A DNA stretch of 64,000 bases, taken from NCBI GenBank assembly GCA_022072455.1, contig JAJVHY010000012.1, forward strand, positions 62,001-126,000, in the 5' to 3' direction. This stretch comes from Verrucomicrobiia bacterium. Its GTDB lineage: Bacteria; Verrucomicrobiota; Verrucomicrobiia; Palsa-1439. Shown piece after piece: positions 32,552-49,945 of the stretch (the first letter of the stretch is position 1; each line of letters starts with the position of its first letter). The translations under genes were made by a program, and so were the position numbers. The notes beneath the pieces were generated by a model that made no database searches, had not been told where the DNA came from, and saw nothing but the letters and a program-made list of their open reading frames with translations.

Positions 32552-35020
32552 CTAAAGCCTCCGCAGGATTTCCTGATATTCATTATCGTCCACCTGAAGC
32601 TGGTCGGGGCTCGCCATGAGTTGGCCCTCAAAGTTTGCGAGGATTTCGCTGCACACGAGGGTAAACTGCAGCTGCTCTTTCTGTATGCTGCCGATCAGCG
32701 TGACCAATGTAAATCGCCGCTCACGCCTCTGCTCGTCACCGCGCAACATCTGAAGCTGAATCCGCGCGGATTTGAATCGCTTCACCGGTGCATCGAGAGG
32801 CACATCAAAATCAGTCTGCATCAGGACCTGATCATCCTCCAGGAGTAGGAGCGAGGCAGCGCACACTACATTTGGCGCGAGGATGCCGACCCCTACCTCC
32901 AGCGCCGGGGCGATGCTCCGGTGTTCGGCAACTGACAGTGTCACGGAATTCCTCACCGAGCTGCCGCGCTTGGTTTGTGCATTCAAAACCAGCTTGGTCA
33001 CGGTCACCTGCTCCAGCACTTCCGTAGCCGATGCCACATGAAACGGAAAACTCGTAATCTCCCGCTCGCTAATGCGGATAATTAACCGGTACAGACCGGG
33101 ATCTTCCGCCAGTTCAGTTCCCCGGACTTGCACCACCAGTTTCGGCAATCGAACCGGCTCCGGTCGCAACACGAATTGAAGTTGGGCAATCTTCCTGAGA
33201 CCGGCAACACCGCCGGACAAGTGAACGTCCGCCACCACCGGCACCTCCGGTAGGAACCGGTTGAAGCCAGCGGCTCTCAAAGTGAGTTGCGGAATGACCG
33301 CATCACAACTGTCAGCCACAATCTCACTTTGATAGCGCCGACCACTGCACAGAACGTGCAGTTCCTGACCTTCCGCTCGCAAGTTCTGCAGAACCAACTG
33401 CTGAGTGTACGGAACGATCTCATCTTCAGCGAGGATTTGCAGCTTCACTTCCGCAACACGCGTCTGCTGTTTCTCCAACCGCAGCCGCCAGTGTCCCGGC
33501 AACAACCAACGCTGCTCCGTACGGAGCGGGATTTTCAGACCATTGCAGACGTTCTTACCGGGTTTAGTGCGAAAGTTGACATCCGTGGCAATGCTCTGTC
33601 CGGTATCTTCGTTGAGCAAGACAACCCGTAACCGCCACGCCACCATTGGGACGTCTTCATCAAACCCGTGACCTTCAACGGCAAACTTCGGCAGGATGGC
33701 TTCGTCCGTCGCGAAGATCACGCCGTCAATCGGTTGCGTTTCGCCATCACGGAGTACGTGAATTTGCACAGCGTCGACCACCAGTCCGTCAAGAATGCTG
33801 GCTGTCTTTTCCTGTCGAATTTGTTGCCGGGTCTTGTGGGTAAAAGCGGTCTGGGCCAGAAGACGGTTTTCCAGATGGATGGTGATTTCATAGCGTCCGG
33901 GACCGTGTTGAAGTAGCGTCGGCGTAATCGGAATCGAGAGCTGGTGACGTGGACTGCTGCCTCCCCACGCGGGGATTGATTGGACCTGATGACTGACGCT
34001 CGGCGTTCGTTCATCGCGACTGACCGTAAGAGCGATCAGGAGGTTCTCCTGGGGGAGCAGCGGGTCCGGCGTGGGCAACTCGAATTGGATGACAGCATCG
34101 ATCGTTCGTGAATCCTCGGCGACTACGTCCAACGGGACGACTTTCCCGTGACGGTCCACGACACTCCAATTGCTTTCCCTGACAATCGCGCCCGCCGTCA
34201 GCATCGCCCGGACGGCGGCCTGATACGTGTCGAAGTCGGTAACTTGAACGAGGTTGGATTTGATCAATTGGTTGGCCAACCGGACGCGAAAGATATAGTC
34301 GCCGGCACCATGTCGAAAGATTCCCGAGCTACCGATCTTCTCGCTCCAAGAACATCGGTCACTGGGGAACGACACTGGGTAAGACCATGACGCTATGCTG
34401 CTGGCACCGTCACCAACGGACGCCAATTCTAGGCTCATTACCAAGCCCATCTCGGTGAGCAACTGCCGATGTTCGGCATTCGGCAGGCTCCACTCGAGAT
34501 CGTATTCCAATTGAGCGACCTGATCGTGAACACGGTTGCATTCGACACGGTAATCCACGAATCGAGCCACTAGCGTCGCGCGATGAATAAGAATTTCTTT
34601 AGCCAGAGCGGCCCGGTCCACGCATTGGAAACGTAACTCCTCGACTGTCCGACCGTTGTCGCGACAAATGACCCTTAACACAAACCCAGACTCCCTGACG
34701 ACCGGCGCACCAGCGATCACGATTGTGAAGACTGAACCATGCTCCGTCGACTGTTCCCGGGTGGTTACTTCCCAGCCTTCGTGCACGCCTCGTCCCTCCT
34801 GATTTGACAAAACAAATTCCAACTGATTGCGACGGGGCCAGCCTATTCGTGGCCAGCGAACCTGTAGTTTGATCTCCAGCGCCTGGGAGTCGTCCAAGTA
34901 TTCACGAGCGAGCGTATAGCGTCTGGCCTCGGTGATCGACGTGCACCGAGACTCCAACAGTTTCACCCCAAACAAATAGGTGAAGAAATCCTGCAACACC
35001 TTTTGAATCGCTGCCATCAT
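32552..35020 (-). CDS. 822-residue Ig-like repeat protein of the E1-E2-JAB operon
   Basis: I do not recognise a named family. Repeated beta-sandwich segments share the pattern Gly-x-Tyr/Trp, an alternating hydrophobic strand, then a second strand: GDYIFRVRLANQLIKSN (about 240-256), GRYEITIHLENRLLAQT (375-391), GHWRLRLEKQQTRVAEVK (515-532) and GLYRLIIRISEREITSF (650-666). There is no signal peptide and no membrane helix. It is the last gene of the operon, 14 nt downstream of the E1-like gene, so it may be a large scaffold or the target of conjugation. Inference only. Confidence 0.75.
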   Translation of the reverse strand: MMAAIQKVLQDFFTYLFGVKLLESRCTSITEARRYTLAREYLDDSQALEIKLQVRWPRIGWPRRNQLEFVLSNQEGRGVHEGWEVTTREQSTEHGSVFTIVIAGAPVVRESGFVLRVICRDNGRTVEELRFQCVDRAALAKEILIHRATLVARFVDYRVECNRVHDQVAQLEYDLEWSLPNAEHRQLLTEMGLVMSLELASVGDGASSIASWSYPVSFPSDRCSWSEKIGSSGIFRHGAGDYIFRVRLANQLIKSNLVQVTDFDTYQAAVRAMLTAGAIVRESNWSVVDRHGKVVPLDVVAEDSRTIDAVIQFELPTPDPLLPQENLLIALTVSRDERTPSVSHQVQSIPAWGGSSPRHQLSIPITPTLLQHGPGRYEITIHLENRLLAQTAFTHKTRQQIRQEKTASILDGLVVDAVQIHVLRDGETQPIDGVIFATDEAILPKFAVEGHGFDEDVPMVAWRLRVVLLNEDTGQSIATDVNFRTKPGKNVCNGLKIPLRTEQRWLLPGHWRLRLEKQQTRVAEVKLQILAEDEIVPYTQQLVLQNLRAEGQELHVLCSGRRYQSEIVADSCDAVIPQLTLRAAGFNRFLPEVPVVADVHLSGGVAGLRKIAQLQFVLRPEPVRLPKLVVQVRGTELAEDPGLYRLIIRISEREITSFPFHVASATEVLEQVTVTKLVLNAQTKRGSSVRNSVTLSVAEHRSIAPALEVGVGILAPNVVCAASLLLLEDDQVLMQTDFDVPLDAPVKRFKSARIQLQMLRGDEQRRERRFTLVTLIGSIQKEQLQFTLVCSEILANFEGQLMASPDQLQVDDNEYQEILRRL

Positions 35021-35034: not shown

Positions 35035-35949
35035 CTACTCAGTTGGGTTCACCGTCGCAGTGTGTTGAGCTTGTGCCTCCAGAGCGTGAAGAATGCGGTT
35101 CGCTTCGGAGCTAACGGTGGTGGAACTGGCGCCGCAGACAAGGCACTCAGGGTCGCGCGGCACACTGAAAAACTCGCAATGCAATGGTCGACCAAGGACA
35201 ACATCACCGGTAAGTGGCCGGTTACAGAACACACAAAGATTGACCGTTCTGGGAATCCCGGTCAGATCGGGGTCACCGGCCAACAAAATGTGAAGGCCAA
35301 TCCGTGCCTGAATCAGCGCGATCTGTTCAATATCCAGATTCAGCGCACACGTTGATTGAATCTCAGCAACATCAAGATTGTTATAATCTATACTCCGTGG
35401 TTTGACCGGAGCCTGACGCGTCAACTGGAGGTGATCCGCGATGCAAGCGTAGCAGGCGGCCTGAGGACTGGCGATGGTGACTTCCCCGCCAATCCCTCCG
35501 TCATACACGCCGCCGGCAACCTGCGGGACACCGGCAGCCACGGCACACTCGTTAATGCAGTGCCGGGCGGGCTCGTTGTCGACGCAGACCATGATGAGTT
35601 GGGGAGACACGCTCCGAACCAATGCCAAGAACTCTTTCTGCTGCGTTGTCACATCCAAATTGACCGTCGTAACGCGACTCGCGGGATTCAGGTCTCGGAG
35701 ATGACTGGCAACCGCTTCATTTTTCAGTTGCCCGAGTACCGGATAACCCAATGGGAAACGAATAATGTTGTGTTCTTCCACTCGCTCGTTCGGCAAATCC
35801 ACCAAAACCAACTCAACGCCAATCCGTCCGAGTTCAATGGCGATGCGGGAACCACCGGATCCCAGCCCTACCACGATGACGCGTGTATTCTGCAGCCGCG
35901 CCGGTTGAAGAATCCCCACGATGCGTCGGTAATAGATCTCCGCATTCAT
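35035..35949 (-). CDS. E1-like ubiquitin-activating enzyme (ThiF/MoeB/HesA superfamily)
   Basis: Adenylates the C-terminus of a ubiquitin-like protein. The 304-residue protein has the Rossmann loop VVGLGSGGSR (GxGxxG at 28-33), the acidic residue at the end of strand 2 (VLVDLP, D51), the NIIRF motif (R64), K76 in GQLKNEAV and D124 in CVDNEPAR, all expected for an active adenylating site. C201 in QSTCALN or the CYAC at 166-169 could be the thioester cysteine. Two CxxC pairs (239/242 and 269/272) suggest a zinc ribbon. GGAGG precedes the ATG. It lies between the 73-residue protein and the Ig-like protein. Confidence 0.9.
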   Translation of the reverse strand: MNAEIYYRRIVGILQPARLQNTRVIVVGLGSGGSRIAIELGRIGVELVLVDLPNERVEEHNIIRFPLGYPVLGQLKNEAVASHLRDLNPASRVTTVNLDVTTQQKEFLALVRSVSPQLIMVCVDNEPARHCINECAVAAGVPQVAGGVYDGGIGGEVTIASPQAACYACIADHLQLTRQAPVKPRSIDYNNLDVAEIQSTCALNLDIEQIALIQARIGLHILLAGDPDLTGIPRTVNLCVFCNRPLTGDVVLGRPLHCEFFSVPRDPECLVCGASSTTVSSEANRILHALEAQAQHTATVNPTE

Positions 35950-36031: not shown

Positions 36032-36253
36032 TCACCGCGGCATTGCATCTCCGTAATGCCGGCCATACCGGACTAACCCAGTTGTGTTCGCGTTGGGCGA
36101 AACCAGATTGACCGGTGTGGTACCTACCACGCCCTTATCCGGGTTGATGACGAGGACCTCGCCCTTGCGTTCGGCCTCGTTGATATTCCACTCCAGTTCG
36201 TCCGCCTTTTGGCGGGGTAATCCAGCAAACGCTGGATCATGCTCACGACTCAT
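36032..36253 (-). CDS. 73-residue orphan in the ubiquitin-like operon, candidate modifier or target
   Basis: Strong start context (GGAAGG 7 nt before the ATG) and a position between the E2 and E1 genes argue for translation. The sequence is hydrophilic: a helix (LPRQKADELEWNINEAERKG), then a beta-like VLVINPDKGVVG and a flexible tail ending RHYGDAMPR. It has no clear beta-grasp fold and no C-terminal Gly-Gly, so it is not an ordinary ubiquitin-like protein. It is the only short gene in the position where a modifier is expected. Function unknown. Confidence 0.7.
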   Translation of the reverse strand: MSREHDPAFAGLPRQKADELEWNINEAERKGEVLVINPDKGVVGTTPVNLVSPNANTTGLVRYGRHYGDAMPR

Positions 36254-36331: not shown

Positions 36332-36727
36332 CTAGCCGGCTGCCTTTGGCCACGTGCCTTTCGACAGATAGACCAGCAGACAAGCAAACCACCGGTGCGC
36401 CGCCGGGATACAGACTGCGGCCGTGTCCCGCGCCGGTTGCCACTCCGACCCAACCCAGTGGTTCGTCCAACAGAGTTCGTTCGCGCCCAGTTGATGCGGC
36501 GAACTCGGCAAGGACTTGACACTAACAATGCGCGGGGCTGAGGCCGGATAATTGCCGGGGTAGATGATGTGGATCGGGAACTCGCGGTCGGATTCCACAA
36601 CTGTGTATTCCCACCCGAGCTGATCTCCCCAACGCTTCAAGACGGCACGGTCACTGAATTTTTGTTCCATGGCACGCACCTCGGCGACCAATCGGTTCTT
36701 GTTGGTTAAGAGTGGATGTTGGGACAT
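36332..36727 (-). CDS. E2-like ubiquitin-conjugating enzyme
   Basis: A 131-residue UBC-fold protein. FPIHIIYPGNYPASAPRIVS (50-69) is the E2 core strand-loop with YPxxxP. The motif NELCWTNHWVGSEWQPA (84-99) matches the prokaryotic E2 pattern, LC followed by W-x-P, so C86 is the likely catalytic cysteine. A terminal W near KGTWPKAAG also fits. SD AAGGA is 7 nt before the start. It lies 15 nt after the JAB gene and before the 73-residue protein. Confidence 0.85.
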   Translation of the reverse strand: MSQHPLLTNKNRLVAEVRAMEQKFSDRAVLKRWGDQLGWEYTVVESDREFPIHIIYPGNYPASAPRIVSVKSLPSSPHQLGANELCWTNHWVGSEWQPARDTAAVCIPAAHRWFACLLVYLSKGTWPKAAG

Positions 36728-36742: not shown

Positions 36743-38065
36743 TTATGCACCGAATGGTGGAGGCAGATCCTCCCCGGCGGAGACCGACAGCGGATTCGCC
36801 ATGACAGTCAATGCCAGATGGGCCAGCCAGATATGGCGGCCAATGGCCGGCTGCTCCCACGCGCCGGGAATGTCGCGCACGGCGCCTGCCACATCCTGAA
36901 CCCGCACCTGGAGCGCGCCTGAGTTTTGACACACCACCTCAATGATCTGTGGACCGTGGGGCGGTTTAATCGTGCAGAGCACTCCATCGTCAGCGGTTTG
37001 CAGTGAAACTTGGGCTCCTAGTTGTCGCAGAACCGCAAAATCAAAGAACGCACTGAACGCACGACCGTTTTCACACAATGCCAGTAACAAAGGAGCGGGT
37101 TGAACCAATGGGATGTCTACCAGGCAGGGCTTAACCTTGACGTATTGATAGTTCGTCGCGTCCGCCATGATAAACAAATCGACTTTCAGGTTCTGGTAGT
37201 ACGTGCTCCGCGCATCCTGTTTCGGATTATTGATTGTGATGATGCCGAACAGGAGTGCCTTGGAAGGTGCGGTTTGCACTGATTGGCGGTCATCCTGCTC
37301 GTCGCCGGAGCTGCACTGGTCGAATTGCCCAGGATGACGGTGAATCATTCCCACATCGACCAGATTGGGATGCTCAATGCGGAGCGCGGCGAGACGCTGG
37401 GTTTGCCAGTGTGTATCGAACAGAATGCTGCCAGTTGAAAAACTCGCCTTGGGGCCGGCTGGAATGAAACCACAAACCCGGATCTCTCGCCGAGTACCTT
37501 CGCTAACAAACTCCCCAACCAGAAGCGCCCCGGCTTCCTGCTCTGGGCCGTGTTTTTGCAGAAACCCGGTGAGATACGCGTGGAGACTCGGAATCAAGTG
37601 CTCGGACAGAATAACCTTGGGAAGCACGCCCGGTTGTACTTCGGGTGCCGGGACGTGGTCTTGCGATGGATGCTTTGGAACCGTGGCGGGCGCAGTTGTC
37701 GTCCGCCCCAGGATGGACACACTCTCTGTTGGTGAACCATGATGGCCAACCGGTACGTCGGATTGGACGGATGGAACGGCACGATCGCATGGTTGCCGGC
37801 ATTGTCGGCAGCCTGCTTGTCGACAGTCGGTTCGCCGCAACAAATACAGAAACCCCAGCACGAAGGTGACTAGCTCAGTTAGTGCCAATAGAAACGCGGC
37901 GATGGCAAATGCGTTACAACCGGGACACGCCAGACTGGCGACTGGCTCCTCAAGCCAAATTCGCCAGAATTCACTCGCCGGCAAAAACGGCAGACCAGCG
38001 AATGTACCGAACAGCCCTGACCGTACTAGGAATCCGGTGGGGATGAGGTTCGGAAGTTTCCTCAT
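36743..38065 (-). CDS. Membrane-anchored JAB/JAMM metallopeptidase (deubiquitinase-like)
   Basis: Starting at MRKLPNLIPTGFLVRSG (GGAG upstream) the protein has 440 residues. A transmembrane segment near the N-terminus (AFAIAAFLLALTELVTFVLG, about 52-71) anchors it. The JAMM zinc motif is intact: HRHPGQFDQCSSGD with H242, H244, S252 and D255, and Glu177 upstream (EQEAGALLVGEF). The C-terminal 130 residues have no recognised fold. Enzymes of this type remove ubiquitin-like proteins from targets or process their tails. It follows a small membrane protein and precedes the E2 gene. Confidence 0.9.
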   Translation of the reverse strand: MRKLPNLIPTGFLVRSGLFGTFAGLPFLPASEFWRIWLEEPVASLACPGCNAFAIAAFLLALTELVTFVLGFLYLLRRTDCRQAGCRQCRQPCDRAVPSVQSDVPVGHHGSPTESVSILGRTTTAPATVPKHPSQDHVPAPEVQPGVLPKVILSEHLIPSLHAYLTGFLQKHGPEQEAGALLVGEFVSEGTRREIRVCGFIPAGPKASFSTGSILFDTHWQTQRLAALRIEHPNLVDVGMIHRHPGQFDQCSSGDEQDDRQSVQTAPSKALLFGIITINNPKQDARSTYYQNLKVDLFIMADATNYQYVKVKPCLVDIPLVQPAPLLLALCENGRAFSAFFDFAVLRQLGAQVSLQTADDGVLCTIKPPHGPQIIEVVCQNSGALQVRVQDVAGAVRDIPGAWEQPAIGRHIWLAHLALTVMANPLSVSAGEDLPPPFGA

Positions 38066-38171: not shown

Positions 38172-38393
38172 TCATTTTCCTTGGGTGGTGAGAATCTTGA
38201 CGATGGCGACAAGAACCAGGCCGATTAGCCCCAGAACGAATAGGCCAATTGTCTTCTCGTCGGTCGTGTGACCGGGACCGATTTGTTTTAGGCCAGTCAG
38301 CGCTCCGGCGATTTGCGGCCCATTACTCGCCAGCAGTACGAGAACGATAATGACGAGAATCAGGGCGATTATGTTCCGCCATTGAATTTGCAT
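38172..38393 (-). CDS. Small two-helix membrane protein
   Basis: A 73-residue protein with two hydrophobic helices (NIIALILVIIVLVLLAS and TIGLFVLGLIGLVLVAIVKI) joined by a short polar loop. AAGGAG is 7 nt before the ATG; the start overlaps the 3' end of the nuclease-like gene by 25 nt. Probably a membrane subunit in the same operon as the JAB protein. Function unknown. Confidence 0.75.
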   Translation of the reverse strand: MQIQWRNIIALILVIIVLVLLASNGPQIAGALTGLKQIGPGHTTDEKTIGLFVLGLIGLVLVAIVKILTTQGK

Positions 38394-38854
38394 GGTCGGC
38401 TCCTTTCTGAGGATGTGGTTGCTGAGGTGATTGTTGGATGTATTAATGTCGTGTCGACATTCAGGACGGACTTTAAAAGACTTTTATTGCGAAGTGCCTC
38501 CAACACAGCGCCCACCGTCAGACAAAATACCGACAACTTCAGGGGACGACGGGTAGTTTGGCGGTCAGTCAGTTTTTGCCGAACGGTGCGCGCCAGTTGC
38601 TCATTGGGGACGACGATCAGCAGCAGGACTGCATGCATCGCCTGGGCCTTGGCGACATCCCAGTAAATGCGTTCGGCTGTCAGTTCGATCTCACAGGCGA
38701 TGCGGCGACCACCGCAAGTCACCATCAGATCGACGTAGCCTTCGAGTGCCGAGGTCACAATTCGATATTCCCGACACACCTCCGCCCCGCTGGCACGGAA
38801 GGCATGCTCGACGCGAGCCGCGAGCACTTGATTATGAAGAAAACCGCCTCTCAT
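38369..38854 (-). CDS. PD-(D/E)XK-like nuclease domain protein
   Basis: A 161-residue protein. The core VTSALEGYVDLMVTCGGRRI (D42) followed by ACEIEL (E55, E57) has the spacing of a restriction-endonuclease-like active site, with the usual ExK lysine replaced by Glu. Similar domains occur in archaeal and bacterial proteins next to HerA-type ATPases. It overlaps the HerA-type gene by 4 nt (ATGA). Whether it is catalytically active is open. Confidence 0.6.
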   Translation of the reverse strand: MRGGFLHNQVLAARVEHAFRASGAEVCREYRIVTSALEGYVDLMVTCGGRRIACEIELTAERIYWDVAKAQAMHAVLLLIVVPNEQLARTVRQKLTDRQTTRRPLKLSVFCLTVGAVLEALRNKSLLKSVLNVDTTLIHPTITSATTSSERSRPCKFNGGT

Positions 38855-40521
38855 ACACCCTCCGGTGCGGTAGTTCCGATAGCCGCAGAGGCCGAAGGCA
38901 ATGGCTCGAGAATCAGCGCCATGCGTCCACGGCGGCCGGTCGCGACCGAGTGTTCACGAATATGGCCGAGATCGACCAAGCGCGTTCGTACCTTGGCGGC
39001 AGTCTGTCCGTTGAGCCCAGCTTGGGTCGCATAGTAAGTCGAAGATTGACCCGGCTGCTTGATCACTCCTTGAAGAAACCGAATCTCCACCTCTGACAGC
39101 GTTGTGGTTTCAGATTTCATCTCCACGACCGGTCGCGGCTCCCAATGGGTGAATTCTTGAGCTGGCACCACGGGCAGCGCGTCGAGTTCGGCGACACTGG
39201 CAGCAACTTCCGCGTCATTCACGACTGCCGGCACATCGAGCAGCGGGACTTGGAATAGGAACGGTTCACGCCATGGCCCCTCTGCCACCTGACCAAGGAA
39301 CATTCCCGGCCGGGAGTGCAAACGCCACCAGTCGATCTGTTGTGAATTGAGGCCAAGGTCTGCCCCCACCGAACTGTAATCTTCGTGGCTCCCCAGCCGC
39401 CCGCAGAATTTCGTCGCCAGATTCGGCACCAGCCGGCGCGACAACCCGATTGTGCTCTGGACATTCACCCCAACGCCAATCGCGCTCCCGCGGATGATTC
39501 CGGCCAGCTCGTCCATTGGCGCAATTTCGCCCGACGCCAGTTCATGCGTCGTACTGAAGAAGCGCTGACCATCTTCAAAGAAAACAAACAGCCGTGTCGG
39601 CTGGTTGATGACACCGCGCTGCACCTCGTGCAAAAACAGCGAGTACAACAGCGGTTCCACCACAATCTGTTTCACCAATTCCGAGGTGCCACTCATCTCG
39701 AAGACGATTGAGTAGCGGGCTAGGTCCGCCGCTAACCATGCCTTCCGGTAGGCGGCACAGCGGGGAGTCAAGGAAAGCAACAGCGTGGCGAGCCGGTCAA
39801 GAATGGCTTCGCGGGAAGCAGCATTCAAATCCGGCGCGGTACGCACCCACTCGTAAAGGTCATAGAGTGTCGGCCACACATCGTGGTGACCGTCCCACAG
39901 ACCAAACCGCCGATATACCTCATGACACCCCTGATGGATGATCGTCCGAGCACGCGGCGGCAGCCCCAGCACCCGCACCAGTAAGTCAACCACCATGGCT
40001 AGGTGCAGACGAAGATCCGCAGTGTTGGCCTGCAGCAAATTCACCCGACATTGTTCCGGCCGCAGCACCACAAGATTCAACCCAACCCGCCGGCACAAAG
40101 TCCGCAGGTGCCGAAACTGGCGCTTGTAGAGATCGACAACCCAGAACCGCGTTTGCAGAGTTGCCAGTTGCAGCAGGAGACAGCACAGCAAATTTGTTTT
40201 GCCGCTACCGGTATTGGCTGCTAGCAGTAATCCGGCCCCCAGCCAACGGTGAGGGATTAGAACCTGTCTTCCTTGGGTATCCTTACCAAGTATTATATCC
40301 CCGGCATGTAATCGTGGCATACGGAACGGGACTAACTCTCCCAATGCGTCCGCCACTCGGACTGGATGTACCCGCCCACAGATCAGTTCTTCAACTTCGG
40401 GATCACGAGCACCATAGTACCAAGCGCGCAGAAGCCGTTTGCTGGTGCGGTCAAGAAACGCGTCGTGGTTTAAGCCCCAACGAATCTCGTCGAATGTTGT
40501 TGATGAAGAGGCTGACTTCAT
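38851..40521 (-). CDS. HerA/FtsK-type ATPase with C-terminal winged helix
   Basis: A 556-residue P-loop ATPase. Walker A is LLAANTGSGKTNLLCC, a strand resembling VirB4/HerA proteins (FWVVDLYKRQFRHL) follows, and Walker B is in RLFVFFEDGQRFF. The last ~85 residues are a winged-helix domain (EVEIRFLQGVIKQPGQSS, YATQAGLNGQTAAKV). A start at 40530 (GTG) would overlap the zinc-protein stop; ATG 40521 is preferred. Its place between the RING-like gene and the nuclease-like gene suggests a DNA-translocating or membrane-pump component of this system. Confidence 0.85.
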   Translation of the reverse strand: MKSASSSTTFDEIRWGLNHDAFLDRTSKRLLRAWYYGARDPEVEELICGRVHPVRVADALGELVPFRMPRLHAGDIILGKDTQGRQVLIPHRWLGAGLLLAANTGSGKTNLLCCLLLQLATLQTRFWVVDLYKRQFRHLRTLCRRVGLNLVVLRPEQCRVNLLQANTADLRLHLAMVVDLLVRVLGLPPRARTIIHQGCHEVYRRFGLWDGHHDVWPTLYDLYEWVRTAPDLNAASREAILDRLATLLLSLTPRCAAYRKAWLAADLARYSIVFEMSGTSELVKQIVVEPLLYSLFLHEVQRGVINQPTRLFVFFEDGQRFFSTTHELASGEIAPMDELAGIIRGSAIGVGVNVQSTIGLSRRLVPNLATKFCGRLGSHEDYSSVGADLGLNSQQIDWWRLHSRPGMFLGQVAEGPWREPFLFQVPLLDVPAVVNDAEVAASVAELDALPVVPAQEFTHWEPRPVVEMKSETTTLSEVEIRFLQGVIKQPGQSSTYYATQAGLNGQTAAKVRTRLVDLGHIREHSVATGRRGRMALILEPLPSASAAIGTTAPEGV

Positions 40522-40526
40522 GGAGA

Positions 40527-40988
40527 TCACCGGTTCTCAAACTTGACGAAGGGAGAAAGCAGAGCTCGGCTCACGCTGCGGATCCGCCGTGCACGACGAA
40601 TCTCCCCGTCGCACCCGCGACAAAAGCGTCCGGTCGCTGTCCCGTTATCAGCCAGCACATACACCGAATGCTCAAGGCAAAGAGGCTTTTGGCAACGAGC
40701 GCAACGGCCAGCACACCGCTGGCACGAAATACGACCACATCCACCTTCGGCGCACTTCCCACCCGGCGGAATCTCCATCGGGCATCCGCAATGATAGAAG
40801 TGGTCAGCGTGGATGTGCGTGGAATCCACTGAATCGCCGACCTCAATTGAGTCGGCTTCCATTGGCAGCTCTACTGGATCGCCGTTTTCATCTCTGGTCC
40901 AACGCAGGCGCTGACGCCGTCGCACCGGTGCGACGGCGTCATCTTGCACTATCTGAAACCGATGTTGGTTGCGCATATTTGTGTTCAT
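40527..40988 (-). CDS. RING-like binuclear zinc-finger protein (possible E3)
   Basis: From MNTNMRNQHRF the protein has 153 residues. The zinc-binding core has four metal-ligand pairs in order: C89/C92, C96/C99, C104/H107 and C123/C126, preceded by C67/C69/C79/C84. This CxxC...CxxC...CxxH...CxxC arrangement is the plan of binuclear treble-clef (RING/B-box-like) fingers, which are known from prokaryotic ubiquitin-like operons. The first 60 residues are charged. It starts 5 nt after the small membrane protein gene. E3 activity is inference. Confidence 0.7.
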   Translation of the reverse strand: MNTNMRNQHRFQIVQDDAVAPVRRRQRLRWTRDENGDPVELPMEADSIEVGDSVDSTHIHADHFYHCGCPMEIPPGGKCAEGGCGRISCQRCAGRCARCQKPLCLEHSVYVLADNGTATGRFCRGCDGEIRRARRIRSVSRALLSPFVKFENR

Positions 40989-40993: not shown

Positions 40994-41170
40994 TCACCAA
41001 GGTTTTGAAAACATCGTCCGATCAAGGAATTGGACCAGGTGCGCCAAGAACTCGGCCACAAACCAAAGCGCCGCCAGACCGACAAGCACCAGGATCAGTA
41101 GGAACGGACCACGCCCAAGGAATCTCAGGCAATCGACTAGTCGTTCTAAGGGAGATTGTCGCCAAGCCAT
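40994..41170 (-). CDS. Small membrane protein (58 residues) at the head of the operon
   Basis: Strong ribosome binding site (GGAGG, 6 nt before the ATG). The product starts MAWRQSPLERLVDCLRFLG and has one long hydrophobic helix (PFLLILVLVGLAALWFVAEF) before a short amphipathic tail ending SKPW. It is 5 nt upstream of the RING-like gene, so translation of the two is probably coupled. Function unknown, but together with the two other membrane-spanning proteins it places the system at the membrane. Confidence 0.75.
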   Translation of the reverse strand: MAWRQSPLERLVDCLRFLGRGPFLLILVLVGLAALWFVAEFLAHLVQFLDRTMFSKPW

Positions 41171-41555: not shown

Positions 41556-42731
41556 GTGACGCCACTGCGGTTCAGGTTGAATCTAACTCGCCGAGGACAG
41601 TTGAGTTTGGAGTCCACTGAGTTTTGGATGGCAGAGCAGCCGAGATCAGCTCCAGCAACTGCAACTGCGGTGTGTCCCCGCTTACAGGAAGCTGCCAGAC
41701 CAAACGACTCGGTGTTTCTTTGGACGGCGGGATCACGAGCGCTGACAGAATTCCTTTTGCGCGCACACGCCCATACTCCGCCCGGTGACTTTCAGTGGGA
41801 AGGCGGCCCCCAGTCTGGGGCACAGACTCTCGCCGAGGCTCTCCGCGACAAACAGACGAACCGGGGCCAGAAGACTTGGATTCAGGGAATATTTACAGCA
41901 TCAAGCGATCAACGACCGCACCCGCTCCCGTGGTCGCTGTTTCAACATAAGTATGATTCGCGAAAAGATTATTATGCAGTTCGTTTAGGCGAAGCTTGGC
42001 AGCACGCAGAGTTCTCAGTATTCGTCGACGGCCGACGTGTTTCCCACGCGGATTACAATTTCTATGCTGAACAACTGAGCAGTCAGTCTCAAGCATGGAC
42101 TCCGGCCCCTGCAAGACTAGACGGGACTGTTGAATTGCACGTGGTTGATGACAAGCGTTCGCAAGAGATTCCAATTCTTGACTATGGGTTGCCACTTCTG
42201 ACGGGAGCAAAGTTGATTGCACGAGTACGGTTGAACGAGCCGAGTTTTGCGTATTTGATCTGGATCACCAGCAAAGGGGAAGTTCAGCCCATCTATCCTT
42301 GGTTGGATTACCAATGGGAGAGCCGGGCTGCTTGCGATAAAATGACCGACTTGTGTCTGCCCCCACCGGATAATGAGGGAAATACCCGTTTCTATCCGGT
42401 CGACACAGATGGGGGGCTTGAATGCATATTTCTATTGACCCGCCACGAGCCCTTAGCAAATAGCTTTGAGCCGAAGCTCCGGCAATTGTTCGGATCGGTA
42501 GGACGTCTCGCGGCGAAAACTCCGGCACGACAGTCTAACTCTCTCTATCATTTCATCTACGCACCAGCTGTGGAAGCCCAACCACGAACCATGCGCCTGG
42601 GATTACCCCAAACGATGTACAACCCATTGGCTCGTTTCAGAACGATCATCTTTGATGGCCTGGGGCTGGAGTTCCCGGTGATAAAGGCTTGGGCTTTTTT
42701 TAATGCTAGAAGGTCGAAAGACCGGAACTGA
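41556..42731 (+). CDS. DUF4384-like protein adjacent to the CHAT protease
   Basis: A 391-residue protein with a GTG start. Residues about 215-300 (LLTGAKLIARVRLNEPSFAY, LIWITSKGEVQPIYPW) have the strand-GEVQPIYP pattern of DUF4384, a domain often found with caspase/CHAT or kinase effectors. The N-terminal ~150 residues are not recognised. It is divergent from the ubiquitin-like operon and convergent with the CHAT gene (73-bp gap). Likely a partner of the CHAT protein; role unknown. Confidence 0.65.
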   Translation: MTPLRFRLNLTRRGQLSLESTEFWMAEQPRSAPATATAVCPRLQEAARPNDSVFLWTAGSRALTEFLLRAHAHTPPGDFQWEGGPQSGAQTLAEALRDKQTNRGQKTWIQGIFTASSDQRPHPLPWSLFQHKYDSRKDYYAVRLGEAWQHAEFSVFVDGRRVSHADYNFYAEQLSSQSQAWTPAPARLDGTVELHVVDDKRSQEIPILDYGLPLLTGAKLIARVRLNEPSFAYLIWITSKGEVQPIYPWLDYQWESRAACDKMTDLCLPPPDNEGNTRFYPVDTDGGLECIFLLTRHEPLANSFEPKLRQLFGSVGRLAAKTPARQSNSLYHFIYAPAVEAQPRTMRLGLPQTMYNPLARFRTIIFDGLGLEFPVIKAWAFFNARRSKDRN

Positions 42732-42803: not shown

Positions 42804-44444
42804 TTAGGTGTACAACACTGGTGCGAGCCAACTCCCGTCCGCCCACGCCCGGTCAGTTGCGACTTTGCCACGCGTCTGGCGCATGGCTTCTTCCGGCCCC
42901 AGTTGGGGATTCGTGATCAGACTTTGATAAAATGTCGAGCCGACTTGGACCGCAGCGTCATCTTCCACATTCCAGTGCATGCCGACCACGTGATTGACAC
43001 CCGCTTCCCGCCAGGCTTTGCACATGCTAAGCTGCCTTCCAGTCACTCGATCTTGCCCGACGCGTGCGCTTTGGCATGAATTCAGGAACACGAGATTCAT
43101 GGGACCGCCTTTCGTGCCGCTCTGACCCAATGTCCCAAATTCATGGAGGTAGAATCTTGTATTCTCGTCGAGCTCGAGAAAACTCTGCCAAGGGTGTTCG
43201 GCGTCGAACATGGAATGTCCCGAAAAGTGAAGAATATTGAAGGCCCGCGACTTCAGTGCCTGAATGAACTTTGCCCGATTGGCATCTGGTCCAGTCAAGA
43301 CTTCAATATTCGATAAACCGGCATTTTGTAGAATCCTGCCGATGTTCTCGACTTCCATCTCCACCCCCGGCAGGTCACCTTTAGAATCTGAGCCGACGAG
43401 AAGTATTCCGGGAGCTTCCCAGACACTAGCTGGAATCTCGGTATCACGAATTGAGGTTACGCAACGACTAAACCGAACTTTAAGCGCCAGAAATTCTTGG
43501 CCATCGTGCATCGCCTCCCACGGTAATTCCTCCGCCCGTCCATCCACTGTTAATCGAAGGACAGCAGATTGACCATGACTAACGACGATGGGCACAACAT
43601 TTATCAACTGGCCCGAACAAACCCGCGTGTAAAACGCATTACCAAACTCAAAGGCCGCCTGACGAAACGGAAGATTCTCGACTGGCCCGGTCATTTCGCC
43701 ACGTGCCGCCAATGCACGATTGTTGATCGCAGCCAGCTTTCTGGTTCCCGCCAGCAGTCCTGCGTATGAATCTTCCCCGAACTTCACCGTCTCCTGTGCG
43801 GCTACGATGTGCTGGTCCGGCATCTGCGCTTCAGCCGCAATCACCATGGCATCTGGAGTTGTAACAACCCGCAATACTCCTTGCGTTCGGAGTTCACGCA
43901 GCGGGGAGCGAAACGCGCCTCGGGCAAGTCTCCGTCGGAACTCCGCGACTCGGGTCCGTTGACCATCCTCGAGGGCAGATACAATTTGCCCGGCACTTGA
44001 AGTAAGTCGTTGCGCGGCTTTCTCGAGGTTCTGACAAACCGTATTCAAATACTTGTCGATATCGTCTCGCCTCCAGCAGGCGTAGAGTCGCATTGCGAAA
44101 GTAGTTAGCTCAAACGTAAGATTGAGATCAATTGAGGTCGTGTTCTCGTCGATGGCAAAGCAGGTGTATTTCGCAATCGTATGTGTTTTGCCCAAACCGC
44201 AGGGCAAACGTATGTCAGAAAGGATGCGAATTTTCCCTGAGGCACCGGTGTTCTCATGTTGGATTACCTCCATATCTAAACTCACGCCAAAAATCTTGGC
44301 GGCGAATTTGCCTTCTTCGATTCTGACGGCACGGAGCGGAGAATCGCTTAGAGCCGACAATATGTCCACGTTAGCTATCACGAAATCCACCCACGGGAAA
44401 CTGGCACTCAGGTTCTTACCGCGTTGGGCTTCCAGAAGTTTCAT
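42804..44444 (-). CDS. SRPBCC-CHAT protease fusion
   Basis: A caspase-like CHAT peptidase, residues about 280-546. The catalytic dyad is His in NILHFSGHSMFD (H410) and Cys in VFLNSCQSARVG (C457). The N-terminal ~145 residues resemble an SRPBCC/START-like domain (DIDKYLNTVCQNLEKAA at its end). GAGGAG is 8 nt before the ATG. CHAT proteases are used as effectors in several bacterial conflict systems. It lies next to a DUF4384-like gene and about 60 nt downstream of the glycosyltransferase gene on the same strand. Confidence 0.85.
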   Translation of the reverse strand: MKLLEAQRGKNLSASFPWVDFVIANVDILSALSDSPLRAVRIEEGKFAAKIFGVSLDMEVIQHENTGASGKIRILSDIRLPCGLGKTHTIAKYTCFAIDENTTSIDLNLTFELTTFAMRLYACWRRDDIDKYLNTVCQNLEKAAQRLTSSAGQIVSALEDGQRTRVAEFRRRLARGAFRSPLRELRTQGVLRVVTTPDAMVIAAEAQMPDQHIVAAQETVKFGEDSYAGLLAGTRKLAAINNRALAARGEMTGPVENLPFRQAAFEFGNAFYTRVCSGQLINVVPIVVSHGQSAVLRLTVDGRAEELPWEAMHDGQEFLALKVRFSRCVTSIRDTEIPASVWEAPGILLVGSDSKGDLPGVEMEVENIGRILQNAGLSNIEVLTGPDANRAKFIQALKSRAFNILHFSGHSMFDAEHPWQSFLELDENTRFYLHEFGTLGQSGTKGGPMNLVFLNSCQSARVGQDRVTGRQLSMCKAWREAGVNHVVGMHWNVEDDAAVQVGSTFYQSLITNPQLGPEEAMRQTRGKVATDRAWADGSWLAPVLYT

Positions 44445-44507
44445 CAACCCATCTCCTCATCAAGCGGCAAAGAGTTGGCAGATGCGCTCGTCGGACCTCT
44501 GGCCTCC

Positions 44508-45951: not shown

Positions 45952-47103
45952 ATGATAATTCCGAGAGCCGAGATTTCATCGAATGTTCGCAGCACGATTG
46001 AGGCAAGTTCAATCACCGGTTTGCTCGGACCGCGTCAATGTGGCAAGACTACTCTAGCCCGAGAACTCGCTGGCGAGCAAAAGGCTACGTATTTCGACTT
46101 GGAGGATCCGGAGGATCAAGCCAGACTCGAGAACCCCAAATTGACACTGGCTCCGTTGAAGGGATTGGTTGTACTCGACGAAATTCAGCGCCGACCAGAT
46201 TTGCTGCCGATGTTGCGAGTATTGGCAGATCGTCGTCCCCTCCCGAGTCGCTTTCTTTTACTGGGCAGTGCATCGCCGGACCTAATGAAAAACGCCTCGG
46301 AGTCTCTCGCGGGTCGGATCCAATTTGTCGACATGAGCGGATTCAACCTTAGTGAGGTCGGCACAGACCACCAGAACCAACTGTGGTTGCGTGGTGGATT
46401 TCCCCCTTCGTTTTTGGCTGGCGATGACGCCGCGAGTTTAGGATGGCGCGAGAGTTTTGTCCGGACATTTCTGGAGCGGGACTTGTCTCTTCTGGGTTTT
46501 CGGATGCCACCGGAGACGATGCGGCGCTTCTGGACAATGGTTGCGCATCATCACGGACAGATCTGGAGTGGGTCAGAGATTGGTTCGTCGCTGGGCATCT
46601 CGCACCACACGGCTCGGCGGTATCTGGATGCATTGGTCGGCTCGTATATGGTGCGACAACTGCAACCGTGGTTTCAAAACGTCGGGAAGCGTGTGGTGAA
46701 ATCCCCCAAAGCCTACCTGCGGGATTCCGGAATGTTGCACGCGCTGCTCAACGTACCAGACTTGTCGGCATTGCAGGCGCATCCGAAACTCGGCGCATCC
46801 TGGGAGGGGTTCGCGCTGGAGCAAATCGTGACATGGGCCGGGGAGCGGAATGCGTTTTTCTGGGCAACCCACGGCGGCGCTGAGTTGGACTTACTGGTGC
46901 ATGCGAAAGGCAAGCGCTGGGGCTTTGAGTTTAAGTACCAAGACGCGCCGAAGATGACGAAGTCGTTGCATACGGCCTTGGCCGATCTGCAACTAGAGCA
47001 CGCTTGGGTGATTTATCCTGGGACAGCGGCCTACGCGTTGCATGAGAAAGTGGACTGCCTCGGACTACGCGAGATCGCCAGCATCAAGCCCCTGATTGCT
47101 TGA
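45952..47103 (+). CDS. AAA ATPase with DUF4143 (archaeal-type ATPase family)
   Basis: A 383-residue protein with Walker A GLLGPRQCGKTTLARELA, Walker B LVVLDEIQRRPDLL, the arginine sensor region (FLLLGSASPDLM) and a C-terminal DUF4143 with nuclease-like WATHGGAELDLLVHAKG...FEFKYQDAP. These ATPases are abundant in bacteria and archaea, often as toxin-like solitary genes. No SD is obvious. It stands alone between the glycosyltransferase and the second HerA-type cluster. Confidence 0.88.
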   Translation: MIIPRAEISSNVRSTIEASSITGLLGPRQCGKTTLARELAGEQKATYFDLEDPEDQARLENPKLTLAPLKGLVVLDEIQRRPDLLPMLRVLADRRPLPSRFLLLGSASPDLMKNASESLAGRIQFVDMSGFNLSEVGTDHQNQLWLRGGFPPSFLAGDDAASLGWRESFVRTFLERDLSLLGFRMPPETMRRFWTMVAHHHGQIWSGSEIGSSLGISHHTARRYLDALVGSYMVRQLQPWFQNVGKRVVKSPKAYLRDSGMLHALLNVPDLSALQAHPKLGASWEGFALEQIVTWAGERNAFFWATHGGAELDLLVHAKGKRWGFEFKYQDAPKMTKSLHTALADLQLEHAWVIYPGTAAYALHEKVDCLGLREIASIKPLIA

Positions 47104-47131
47104 ACAGTATTCGGGGAATATCCCCACATAC

Positions 47132-47482
47132 TTACGTATGTACTGAGTCAGACTTCTGCCGGAGAAAGATTCGATACGGACGGTGGGACTTGTTCTTCAC
47201 GGCCTGAATCCGGTCGTAGAAGATCAGCGTTCCGTCGTGCGAGCCAAGCGGAATGGTGTTGGCCAGATACTGCAGCGCCTTGCGGATGGCAGCGCCACTG
47301 CGGTTACAGAGTTTCATCAACCGCGAAAGGGTGAGTGGATACCGGTAGCAGGGACGTGTGCCATACAGATTCTTGTAGTAGTGAACGATCTGCTCATACA
47401 CATGATTCAACAGTCGCACTTCACGTTCGTCGAGCACTTCAATAACACCGGACCTAACCCACACCCGCTTCTGAAGCATCAT
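47132..47482 (-). CDS. Hypothetical protein, winged-helix-like
   Basis: From MMLQKRVWVRSGVIEVLDE the protein has 116 residues; GGAGG lies directly before the tandem ATGs. The segment REVRLLNHVYEQIVHYYKNL followed by SRLMKLCNRSGAAIRKALQY looks like a winged helix (helix-turn-helix plus wing). It overlaps the 3' end of the HerA-type gene by 29 nt, so the two are coupled. Confidence 0.6.
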   Translation of the reverse strand: MMLQKRVWVRSGVIEVLDEREVRLLNHVYEQIVHYYKNLYGTRPCYRYPLTLSRLMKLCNRSGAAIRKALQYLANTIPLGSHDGTLIFYDRIQAVKNKSHRPYRIFLRQKSDSVHT

Positions 47483-48833
47483 CACCTCCGTCGCCAATAT
47501 CGGTGTCCATGACTGTGCCCCTCTCCACCGGCACGAGAGGGAATCTGACGTAGCATGGCTCAACTCGCCCTTTGATCTTCACAATCCCTTCGCCAACCGC
47601 TAACCGGTCGAGAAATACCTCATCGCCACGGGGAAGAAACAGGGCGCGCTTCGCCGTCACAATATCGTCCTCGTGCTGAAGGCCGAGATAGATCTGCGTG
47701 TTGCAGTTACCGAGAATGTAGACCGGCAGCATGGATGGATGCTGGGTGATATTCACCAAGCCCTCGCCAAAACTACGAATTTCCCTGAACACGGTCTCCA
47801 GGCTGTTGGTCGCTTGTTTCTCAATCTGACTTTTTGGAAATAAGTTGTGGACTTCTTCGAGTACGGTCACGTGCCGGAGTGAATCAGTCTCCCCTTGCCC
47901 CAGCCGGTAGAGATGAATCCACCGCAAGATGATGTCGTTCAGAAACACTCGTAGTGGCTTCGGTAACTCTTGATCAAGTTCGATGACGACGGGTTGTTCG
48001 AGTAGTTCCTCCAGCTTGATCGGGTTTCGCGCGTTGAACGCGCCGGCAGCCGGGCCAAAGATGAACGTGTTAAGAATTCTCAGGCAGCTATCCTGCCAGA
48101 GCATACGTCGTCCTTTGAACTGAACGCGGTCGAGTTCTTCCCGGGCATCGAAGAAGTTTGGGTACTGGTCCGGTATACCATTGTATAGACCGGTATCCGC
48201 GAATTTTTTGTCGAGAATCTCGATCAGAATGTCCGCCACGCCGGGGCCCGAGATGTGGGATTTCTCCAATGCCTCTGCCACTGTGCTGATCCATGTCTTA
48301 GGATGTACCCCCGGCGGGCCGCGCAACGGATTCCATCGAAACATGGACGCGCTTTTACGTCCGACAGTTAACACCCGCAGCTTCTTGGTGTTCGGCCGGT
48401 TCAATGCTCGCAATGACCGGTAACTACGTTTCCAATCAAGGACCAAGAATGGTACGTTTTTCTCCAGCAAACCGAGCAGGAGACTTTGCGCGACATTTGT
48501 TTTCCCGCCACCCGTGATGGAGAAGATCCCGATGTGCTTAATGAAGTTTTCCCGGCGAAGCTGAAGCGGAAAAAACTCCGACTTGCCGTAAAGAATCGTG
48601 CCCAGTGGAAACTCGCCATCGGCAGCCTCACGCGATGGCGGTGGCAGCAGAATCTTCGTATCGTCCACACGATCGGTCAGGTACCGGGTCGCGATCATTT
48701 GGATCAAGGCTTCCGACTGTCGTTTTGCCTCCGGTGTCTCCGCGGTCGCATAGGCAATCCAGAGGGCATCGGCTCGTTTGCCGACCAGCGGTTTCAATTT
48801 CCGGCAGAGTTCCTTCAATTGTTCCTCAAACAT
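47454..48833 (-). CDS. HerA-type ATPase, second copy
   Basis: A 459-residue P-loop ATPase (DUF87/TraD-like). Walker A is GIFSITGGGKTNVAQ (K111); the strand FLVLDWKRSYRSLRALNRPN equals that of the first HerA-type protein (VVDLYKRQFRHL). Walker B is VTVLEEVHNLFP. It overlaps an upstream coiled-coil gene by 8 nt. A conjugation or DNA-processing function is likely for this class. Confidence 0.85.
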   Translation of the reverse strand: MFEEQLKELCRKLKPLVGKRADALWIAYATAETPEAKRQSEALIQMIATRYLTDRVDDTKILLPPPSREAADGEFPLGTILYGKSEFFPLQLRRENFIKHIGIFSITGGGKTNVAQSLLLGLLEKNVPFLVLDWKRSYRSLRALNRPNTKKLRVLTVGRKSASMFRWNPLRGPPGVHPKTWISTVAEALEKSHISGPGVADILIEILDKKFADTGLYNGIPDQYPNFFDAREELDRVQFKGRRMLWQDSCLRILNTFIFGPAAGAFNARNPIKLEELLEQPVVIELDQELPKPLRVFLNDIILRWIHLYRLGQGETDSLRHVTVLEEVHNLFPKSQIEKQATNSLETVFREIRSFGEGLVNITQHPSMLPVYILGNCNTQIYLGLQHEDDIVTAKRALFLPRGDEVFLDRLAVGEGIVKIKGRVEPCYVRFPLVPVERGTVMDTDIGDGGDDASEAGVG

Positions 48834-49281
48834 CTTCCAGAAACGCTCCTCGCGCCTTAGCACGTTCGTATTCGTCCCAGAACATGAGAAAATCACGCAA
48901 CACAAGCACAATGTCCCGCCAGCACTGGGTGTCTTGATCTCGGCGTTCCTGAGTCAATTCAAAGTCGCGCTGATACAGCCGGTCCTTCTCCTTGTGATCA
49001 CGTAGATGATAATTCGCCGCGACGCTGATCTGTTGAACCATCCCGGTCAGTTTCTCGCGATCATCCGCGATGCGCTCAATGTTCTGTTGCCGGATCTTCA
49101 GCCGCGCCTGAACCGTCGTGCCGATGGCTTCCAGTTTCGTCCGCAGAATCCGTGTATTGACGTGGATCAGATCGTCGAGTGTCTTGTTGGTAGCACTGGC
49201 CAGAACCGGGCTTACGCTAACCGCATACTCCTTGCCCGGTATCCTGACCCGACTCCAATCAATCAGCTTCTCCAGTTCCAT
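48826..49281 (-). CDS. Coiled-coil hypothetical protein
   Basis: A 151-residue protein dominated by long helices (RLKIRQQNIERIADDREKL, HLRDHKEKDRLYQRDFELTQ). No membrane helix. Its stop overlaps the HerA-type ATPase start, so it is probably a partner of it. First gene of this three-gene minus-strand cluster. Confidence 0.65.
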   Translation of the reverse strand: MELEKLIDWSRVRIPGKEYAVSVSPVLASATNKTLDDLIHVNTRILRTKLEAIGTTVQARLKIRQQNIERIADDREKLTGMVQQISVAANYHLRDHKEKDRLYQRDFELTQERRDQDTQCWRDIVLVLRDFLMFWDEYERAKARGAFLEDV

Positions 49282-49388
49282 ACTGGAACCGGCCGGCTGA
49301 TTCTAAAGAGGTTTGCCAACATTGCATTCGGAACGGTGGGAGAATGGCTTGAGCCTGACAGCGTTCTGTGGCATCCTCCTGCACAACG

Positions 49389-49619
49389 ATGAACACTGAG
49401 CTTCTCCGCCGCATCACTATTGAACCTGACAAGTGCGGTGGACGTCCCTGCATTCGCAACACTCGCATGCGGGTCGTGGACGTGCTCCAATTGCTCAGCG
49501 CCGGCGCGCCCGTTGAAGAAATCCTCACCGACTACGCCTTTCTCGAGCGCGAAGACATTCTGGCGGCCATTGAGTACGCCGCGATGCAGACCGATCATGT
49601 GATCCTGCAGCCCGCGTGA
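49389..49619 (+). CDS. DUF433 antitoxin-like protein
   Basis: A 76-residue protein with the DUF433 pattern: RITIEPDKCGGRPCIRNTRM, VVDVLQLLSAGAPVEEIL and the winged-helix end DILAAIEYAAMQTDH. This family is usually the antitoxin partner of DUF5615 PIN-like toxins, which is the gene following it by a 4-nt overlap. Confidence 0.85.
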   Translation: MNTELLRRITIEPDKCGGRPCIRNTRMRVVDVLQLLSAGAPVEEILTDYAFLEREDILAAIEYAAMQTDHVILQPA

Positions 49620-49945
49620 AATTCCTCGTGGACAACCAACTCCCGGTTGCCCTGGCCAAGCGACTCGTGACTCTTGGCCATGAAGCTCAGCACGTACTTG
49701 ATCTCGGTTTGGACAAAGCCAGCGACACCGAAATCTGGAAACACGCGGCCACGCATTCGCTTGTATTGATCACGAAGGACGAGGACTTCCTACAACGCGC
49801 CTCGCAACCGGGGTCTCCCGTTCAAATCGTCTGGGTGCGCCTCGGCAATTGCCGCAACGCCATTTTGCTGGCGGCGTTCGAGTCCGTGCTTCCGCAATTG
49901 TTGACGGCGCTTCAAGCCGGCAACCACGTCGTCGAGCTTCGCTGA
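49616..49945 (+). CDS. DUF5615 PIN-like toxin
   Basis: A 109-residue Mut7-C/PIN-like protein. It has MKFLVDNQLPVALAKRL (Asp in the first strand), the second acidic region SDTEIWKHAA and LVLITKDEDFLQRA. It starts at GTG overlapping the DUF433 stop. The pair forms a compact toxin-antitoxin module at the start of the 49-58 kb cluster. Confidence 0.82.
   Translation: MKFLVDNQLPVALAKRLVTLGHEAQHVLDLGLDKASDTEIWKHAATHSLVLITKDEDFLQRASQPGSPVQIVWVRLGNCRNAILLAAFESVLPQLLTALQAGNHVVELR

What the first reader, a model, noticed from the sequence alone, without database searches (positions are those of the whole stretch)
40527..40988. Four Cys/His pairs in the RING-like order: a bacterial E3 candidate
Pairs C89/C92, C96/C99, C104/H107 and C123/C126 plus upstream cysteines give the ligand plan of a binuclear treble-clef finger. 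The gene is next in line to E1-E2-JAB genes. RING-like fingers are rare in bacteria.
Basis: partly seen in the sequence, partly recalled or inferred. Interest (0 to 1): 0.6.

Follow-up and report, generated by a model that had tools for sequence, protein, structure and literature searches.

The report
FYVE-like zinc adaptor beside DNA pump
A small bacterial protein flagged as a possible ubiquitin ligase looks instead like a two-zinc adaptor of a type best known from eukaryotes; it is encoded with a DNA-pumping ATPase and a nuclease-like protein, and that set is coupled to ubiquitin-like enzymes in some bacteria and to quite different signalling genes in others.

Summary
Distant positional relatives repeat a C-x(2,4)-C / C-x2-C-x4-C-x2-H / C-x2-[CH] plan. 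Ligand pairs 2 and 4 are lost together in three relatives, which implies interleaved (cross-braced) zinc sites, so 'binuclear treble clef' survives. 'RING-like' does not: the RING spacing is absent, and in two AlphaFold models the last ligand pair opens a long alpha-helix, as in FYVE/PHD fingers. The best structural matches are FYVE-type domains, though weak (Z 4.4 and 5.7). 'E3 ligase' is not supported. The neighbouring gene is a HerA-like ATPase, not E1, E2 or JAB. A finger gene directly precedes this ATPase in 11 of 12 family loci and in none of 6 generic HerA loci, but only 3 of those 11 loci have an E2-like gene. The others carry a JAB-E1 fusion with an AAA ATPase, TerY/PP2C(/kinase), GrpE/Hsp70/vWA, or none of these. 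I read the finger as an adaptor of a membrane-linked HerA/nuclease core (probably defensive), with E1/E2/JAB as one of several interchangeable regulatory cassettes. Sequence support for homology between the window finger and its relatives is weak, and nothing is tested biochemically.

The parts
40527..40988 (-). the finding: 153-aa zinc-finger protein
   Evidence: stop codon overlaps the ATPase start by 4 nt (sequence)
40611..40754 (-). FYVE-type finger, residues 79-126 (proposed site 1: C79,C84,C104,H107; site 2: C96,C99,C123,C126)
   Evidence: choice of C79/C84 over C89/C92 is inferred
40994..41170 (-). 58-aa hydrophobic (membrane) ORF just upstream of the finger
   Evidence: by position equivalent to the TM gene of related loci, no sequence match
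38851..40530 (-). HerA-like ATPase, GTG start
   Evidence: Pfam DUF87 weak, 0.027; PADLOC mad8 1.4e-9
38369..38854 (-). restriction-nuclease-like protein (conserved D...ExE by eye); fused to the ATPase C-terminus in related loci
38172..38393 (-). 73-aa two-TM ORF
36743..38065 (-). JAB-like peptidase with hydrophobic N-terminal part; HxH-x7-S-x2-D seen by eye
   Evidence: (Prok-JAB 0.029, below cut-off); start codon chosen
36332..36727 (-). E2-like protein
   Evidence: PADLOC E1-E2 3.2e-7, E2 4.7e-5
36032..36253 (-). 73-aa ORF between E2 and E1; modifier candidate by position only
   Evidence: no Pfam match
35035..35949 (-). E1-like ThiF protein
   Evidence: ThiF 5e-24; E1-E2 1.2e-21
32552..35020 (-). 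822-aa protein of unknown family, last gene of the run

Best explanation
The protein is a zinc-stabilised adaptor with a FYVE/PHD-type binuclear treble clef. It belongs to a core module made of a small membrane protein, the finger, a HerA-like DNA-pumping ATPase and a nuclease-like protein. Proposed mechanism: the finger is made together with the ATPase (shown: 4-nt gene overlap), anchors the ATPase/nuclease assembly at the membrane protein (inferred), and offers a docking surface through which a regulatory cassette switches the pump on or off (inferred). In the window that cassette would be E1/E2/JAB attaching and removing a modifier; in relatives it would be TerY/PP2C/kinase, GrpE/Hsp70/vWA, or a JAB-E1 fusion with an AAA ATPase. 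The likely outcome is degradation of invading DNA (inferred).
For: Finger gene directly before the family ATPase in 11 of 12 family loci (the 12th, L066, has a truncated ATPase), and no pair-rich ORF before the ATPase in 6 of 6 generic HerA loci (coordinates). A homologous TM gene precedes the finger in clade-1 loci (BLAST links among L028, L042, L062, L063, L064, L065), and the same gene order is listed for L036. The nuclease-like gene is next in 8 of 8 loci with an unfused full-module ATPase, and its profile matches the C-terminal tail of the clade-2 ATPases (hhalign prob 94.9, E 4.6e-8), a fusion that argues for joint action. Cassettes differ: E1+JAB+E2-like in 3 of 11, JAB-E1+AAA_2 in 2 of 11, TerY-type vWA+PP2C in 2 of 11 (kinase seen in one), GrpE+Hsp70+vWA in 1 of 11, none of these in 3 of 11. 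Fold: FYVE-type rows lead both VIA lists; last pair at the helix N-terminus in both models. PADLOC mad8 is the top hit of the ATPases L062, L028 and L067, and the L062 kinase hits mad6.
Against: Sequence similarity of the window finger to the others is weak: BLASTP pairwise E 0.028 with G371, hhalign prob 13.7, E 0.002 with clade 1, and no real match with clade 2. Clade 2 fingers share only a C-x-[CH]...C-x2-C half. L065 has one Cys where pair 1 should be. The window model has mean pLDDT 59.8, and both Z values are below the level at which a match is convincing. Several contigs end near the module, so cassette absence is not proven. In the window and in G371 the finger does sit with E1/E2/JAB. 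Membrane anchoring and defence are inferences. The mad8 hit of the window ATPase is not specific: the generic window HerA at 47454-48911 also hits mad8 (3e-8).
Confidence: 0.5

Rival explanations
1. It is a genuine E3 of the E1-E2-JAB set: a non-RING binuclear treble clef that binds E2~modifier and directs it to the ATPase complex.
For: E1, E2-like and JAB genes lie in the same run in the window and in both G371 copies. RING-type E3s occur in bacterial Ubl operons (PMC7159879 passages). FYVE-like fingers exist in eukaryotic E3s such as CHFR (PMC4999995 passages).
Against: RING spacing absent in 11 of 11; RING-like C-terminal strand absent in both models; no E2 found in 8 of 11 finger loci and no E1 in 6 of 11; gene coupled to the ATPase.
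Confidence: 0.12
2. The finger is the nucleic-acid-recognition subunit of the HerA/nuclease complex (reads DNA or RNA) and has no role in linking to the regulatory cassettes.
For: Constant partner of an FtsK/HerA-type ATPase and a nuclease-like gene; Arg-rich C-terminal helix in the window protein (sequence); treble clefs include nucleases and ribosomal proteins (PMC4999995 passages; L24e-like ribosomal and endonuclease VII rows).
Against: The NWDTWEAYD helix region of clade 1 is not basic; the ATPase already carries a winged-helix-like C-terminus (weak; seen by eye).
Confidence: 0.22
3. The fingers upstream of the different ATPases are not one family; unrelated Cys-rich small proteins occupy the same slot by convergence, and the window protein is a singleton.
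For: Very weak sequence links between window, clade 1 and clade 2 fingers.
Against: Shared ligand plan and -LC-x2-H- core, same gene slot, same predicted topology in two models built for different proteins; but the window model's alignment contained the clade 1 rows, so the two are not fully independent.
Confidence: 0.12
4. The four pairs plus upstream cysteines form a redox or metal sensor that triggers the system, the regulatory cassettes acting downstream.
For: 11 Cys and 6 His in 153 aa; TerY-P triads are hypothesised to be metal-sensing (PMC11090510 passages).
Against: Three relatives keep only four of the eight ligands, which suits a structural rather than a sensing site.
Confidence: 0.04

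Closest known systems
FYVE and FYVE-related fingers (Vps27, RUFY, EEA1, melanophilin, RIM2)
   Same: C-x(2,4)-C / C-x2-C-x4-C-x2-[CH] / C-x2-[CH] order (FYVE spacing recalled); two hairpins; last pair starts the terminal helix; best structural rows (Vps27 1vfy: Z 5.7, rmsd 2.2 over 55 residues for the G371 finger)
   Different: Bacterial; no Pfam FYVE match; no phosphoinositide R(R/K)HHCR motif (motif recalled); His in pair 3; weak Z
Prokaryotic RING-type E3 of bacterial Ubl operons (Burroughs 2011, not held; Kaur 2020 PMC7159879, passages)
   Same: small zinc protein in a run of genes with E1, E2-like and JAB
   Different: not RING spacing or topology; genomic partner is a HerA-like ATPase; also occurs without detected E1/E2
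Bacterial B-box membrane proteins (e.g. L043:8979-9404 found here)
   Same: CxxC-x4-CxxC/H core; found by the same profile
   Different: pair 4 follows pair 3 after 13-15 residues here, 3-6 in the B-box pattern used (recalled); no TM segment fused to the finger in L043's manner; own gene slot before the ATPase
MADS anti-phage system (mad6 kinase, mad8 ATPase)
   Same: family ATPases hit PADLOC mad8, one kinase hits mad6, one locus has an adjacent methyltransferase
   Different: finger matches no mad model; window has E1/E2/JAB and no mad gene other than the ATPase among the 6 window proteins scanned
TerY-P triad (vWA, PP2C, kinase)
   Same: present in L062; TerY and PP2C in L042
   Different: is a swapped cassette here, not the finger's own system

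Membership tests
RING finger E3 | C-x2-C-x(9-39)-C-x(1-3)-H-x(2-3)-C-x2-C-x(4-48)-C-x2-C (PMC11354881 passages) | tested here: not met
   0 of 11 family fingers; a version allowing C or H at every position matches only the window protein, and the matches listed start at His 60, 63 and 66
RING finger E3 | three-stranded sheet with last ligand at the start of a C-terminal strand (PMC4506424 passages) | tested here: not met
   last pair starts a helix: window 124-147, G371 model 89-108
RING finger E3 | binds E2 and promotes transfer | not testable with these tools
   needs protein work
Binuclear cross-braced treble clef | two zinc half-sites interleaved along the chain (PMC4999995 passages) | tested here: met
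   of 8 alignable fingers pairs 2 and 4 are both present in 5 and both absent in 3, never one alone (for seven, window); indirect, no metal measured; the 3 clade 2 fingers were left out because their register is uncertain
FYVE/PHD-type finger | second zinc site is itself treble-clef-like, last pair at helix N-terminus (PMC4999995 passages; helix detail inferred) | tested here: met
FYVE/PHD-type finger | fold match to solved FYVE structures | tested here: inconclusive
   FYVE-type rows first in both lists but Z at most 4.4 and 5.7; Foldseek E above 0.4
FYVE (phosphoinositide-binding) | R(R/K)HHCR basic motif at pair 2 (recalled) | tested here: not met
   absent in the translations
B-box | pair 4 three to six residues after pair 3 (recalled spacing) | tested here: not met
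   0 of 11
AN1 | C-x2-4-C-x9-12-C-x1-2-C-x4-C-x2-H-x5-H-x-C (recalled) | tested here: not met
   0 of 11; Pfam zf-AN1 0.059 for the G371 finger, below cut-off
MADS | mad8-type ATPase | tested here: inconclusive
   window ATPase 1.4e-9 but a generic HerA reaches 3e-8
MADS | other mad genes next to it | tested here: not met
   no mad model other than mad8 among 6 window operon proteins, nor for the 822-aa protein; flanks not all scanned
Bacterial E1-E2-JAB conjugation set | E1, E2, JAB and a modifier in one operon | tested here: inconclusive
   E1 and E2 supported, JAB weak; no modifier identified in window; 84-aa candidate in G371 by position only (no match of note)

The most novel reading that the evidence does not exclude
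Bacteria use a FYVE-type zinc finger, a fold so far associated with eukaryotes (recalled), as a universal socket on a membrane-bound HerA/nuclease machine, into which exchangeable protein-modification cassettes (ubiquitin-like conjugation, Ser/Thr phosphorylation, Hsp70 chaperones, unfoldase) are plugged.
Probability: 0.2. Interest if true: 0.8.

Novelty: new variant of a known kind. Interest (0 to 1): 0.5.

Why it matters
If right, one DNA-pump/nuclease core is controlled by unrelated kinds of protein modification in related bacteria, with a zinc adaptor as the common interface. That gives a concrete way to ask what bacterial ubiquitin-like conjugation actually regulates: the target would be the ATPase complex next door. 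It also would place a FYVE-like topology in bacteria, bearing on where eukaryotic membrane-trafficking fingers came from.

Tried and rejected
No relative of the finger by sequence in plasmids or viral contigs; the phylum search with the single protein gave 15 marginal genomes besides the own one (best E 4.2e-4), which I did not follow one by one. A genome-contig scan with an ATPase alignment returned only three loci I already had. E2 as a bait gave one doubtful genome and one plasmid E2/E1 protein. Single proteins against solved structures by sequence gave nothing meaningful; the clade 1 profile gave a FYVE domain first but only at E 0.052. G266/L043, found by the finger profile, is a different B-box membrane protein and was left out of the counts; generic HerA loci L029-L033 were kept as controls. 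The E. coli plasmid ATPase hit had no finger listed next to it; a Streptomyces plasmid hit of P0005 and one of the L062 ATPase were not followed. The last part of the script stopped with an error, so its JAB check was not used; the same script showed no BLAST similarity between the vWA or PP2C proteins of L042 and L062, whose identity rests. I searched the held literature for bacterial FYVE fingers and for HerA with TerY or ubiquitin and saw no paper on this combination in the listings; the library lacks Burroughs 2011 and Maestri 2024, so it may be in print there. No coordinates of the models were available, so zinc distances were not measured.

Full report
What is there. The gene is on the minus strand, 40988-40527, 153 codons. 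It ends inside the start of the next gene (4-nt overlap), a HerA-like ATPase at 40530-38851, followed by a nuclease-like gene, a small membrane ORF, JAB, E2-like, a 73-aa ORF, E1 and an 822-aa protein. A hydrophobic 58-aa ORF ends 5 nt upstream of the finger. A serine recombinase lies beyond the far end (30499-32010). No relative of the ATPase was found in 10 further genomes of the same family (11 genomes searched including the own one), which suits a mobile island.

More than chance. Four CxxC/H pairs occur in 117 of 20,000 shuffles of the protein, the complete eight-ligand spacing in 0 of 20,000, and 2 of 184 ORFs of at least 100 aa in the window have four pairs.

Relatives. The finger itself finds nothing reliable, so I used its neighbour. 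The ATPase led to G371, which carries the same gene order twice: TM, finger, ATPase, nuclease-like, 84-aa ORF, E2-like candidate, JAB, E1. The G371 E2-like and 84-aa proteins match no library model of note, so they are candidates by position and by eye. A three-sequence finger profile found G320 (1.6e-5) and a different B-box protein in G266. An ATPase profile found 12 of 387 genomes. From these I took 12 family loci: window, two in G371, G320, G127 C80, G227 C206, G339, G273, G247 (clade 1 and window), and G127 C15, G165, G227 C111 (clade 2, by BLAST scores). The rest of the 18 matches were the generic HerA loci and further pieces of the G320 gene. By BLAST score the window ATPase stands apart from both clades. 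G227, G127 and G371 are Pontiellaceae B12227, Kiritimatiellales OB10 and Kiritimatiellae STD1_155.

The finger goes with the ATPase. In 11 of 12 family loci the ORF directly before the ATPase has two or more CxxC/H pairs; the 12th (L066) has a truncated ATPase and no finger. In 6 generic HerA loci (L029-L033 and the second HerA of the window) the ORFs before the ATPase have at most one such pair. In clade 1 a homologous TM gene comes before the finger. The nuclease-like gene is found in 8 of 8 finger loci with an unfused ATPase (the profile contained 7 of these 8; L063 was found independently, 1.9e-28). In clade 2 the same domain is fused to the ATPase (hhalign prob 94.9).

The cassettes change. 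Of the 11 finger loci, E1 is found in 5 (window, L028, L036, L063, L067; the profile contained all five), and an E2-like gene in 3 (window; L028 and L036 with a different type). L063 and L067 have a JAB-E1 fusion and an AAA_2 ATPase. L062 has vWA, PP2C and kinase, some 4 kb downstream behind a methyltransferase and a recombinase. L042 has TerY (6e-40) and PP2C (3.1e-10) before the contig ends. L065 has GrpE, Hsp70 and vWA. L064, L068 and L069 show none of these in the stretch held. Contig ends near L042, L065, L067, L068 and L069 limit the negatives. So the finger belongs to the constant core, and E1/E2/JAB to the exchangeable part.

Fold. Across the eight alignable fingers (window and seven of clade 1), pairs 2 and 4 are both present in five and both absent in three (L062, L063, L064), while pairs 1 and 3 stay, except that L065 has a single Cys at pair 1. 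Joint loss is what interleaved sites 1+3 and 2+4 predict. Clade 2 keeps a C-x-[CH]...C-x2-C half and a separate Cys/His group, and its register with the others is uncertain. AlphaFold on the window protein is confident only from about residue 90 to 145 (block means 83-88 for 91-140, 74 for 141-150; overall 59.8). On the G371 finger, without the window row, it is better (80.9). Both end in a hairpin and then a long helix that begins at the last ligand pair. In the VIA second look at Foldseek's list, the first twelve rows for G371 are FYVE or FYVE-related domains (1vfy Z 5.7, rmsd 2.2, 55 aligned); for the window model they are among the first rows, with endonuclease VII mixed in (2zet Z 4.4, 1vfy 3.9). 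RING rows come lower (TRAF3 2ecy Z 3.2; RNF12 6w9d Z 2.1). All Z are low and the fold claim rests on topology, spacing and co-loss together.

RING or not. The RING consensus quoted in PMC11354881 (passages) is absent in all 11 fingers; the gap between pair 2 and pair 3 is four residues here, 2-3 in RING. PMC4506424 and PMC4999995 (passages) define RING-like clefs by a C-terminal strand and describe the second site of FYVE/PHD as treble-clef-like. The models fit the latter.

Mechanism. Shown: gene coupling, constant module, exchangeable cassettes, ligand plan. Inferred: a protein-protein docking role, anchoring at the membrane protein, control of the pump by modification, and DNA degradation as the output. 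PADLOC links the family ATPases to mad8 (8.8e-19, 1.8e-16, 1.1e-18; window 1.4e-9) and one kinase to mad6, which points to anti-phage defence, but the window hit is not specific because a generic HerA also matches mad8 (3e-8). MADS itself I know only from recall and from citing passages.

Noticed in passing
window 42804-44447 (-) and 41556-42731 (+): A CHAT (caspase-like) protein (Pfam 8e-37; PADLOC BovA 1e-11) and a weak DUF4384 protein lie next to the operon; the CHAT gene could be an effector of the same island.
   Followed up: partly
L028 and L036 (G371): One genome carries the complete module twice, finger proteins 68% identical, about 93 kb apart on one contig.
   Followed up: partly
window 36032-36253, L028 11600-11854, L036 12278-12532: Small ORFs beside the E2-like genes that could be the modifier; none ends in an obvious Gly-Gly and none matches a library.
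   Followed up: partly
window 45952-57347: A second HerA-like ATPase (47454-48911), a WGR/ATP-dependent DNA ligase (52209-53294) and an integrase-like gene (56118-57347, by eye) suggest a further integrated element.
   Followed up: partly
L067 9185-12058: 957-aa protein with pentapeptide repeats (Pfam 2.8e-16) and, by eye, a caspase-like N-terminus, directly downstream of the clade 2 module.
   Followed up: no
L065 6615-7244, L068 1895-2725, L069 6463-7182: SprT-like metalloprotease genes beside the module in three loci (Pfam 1.3e-5, 9.6e-8, 2.7e-10).
   Followed up: no
window 26959-27456 (-): The only other window ORF of at least 100 aa with four CxxC/H pairs (165 aa), next to a mutL-like gene (by eye).
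   Followed up: no
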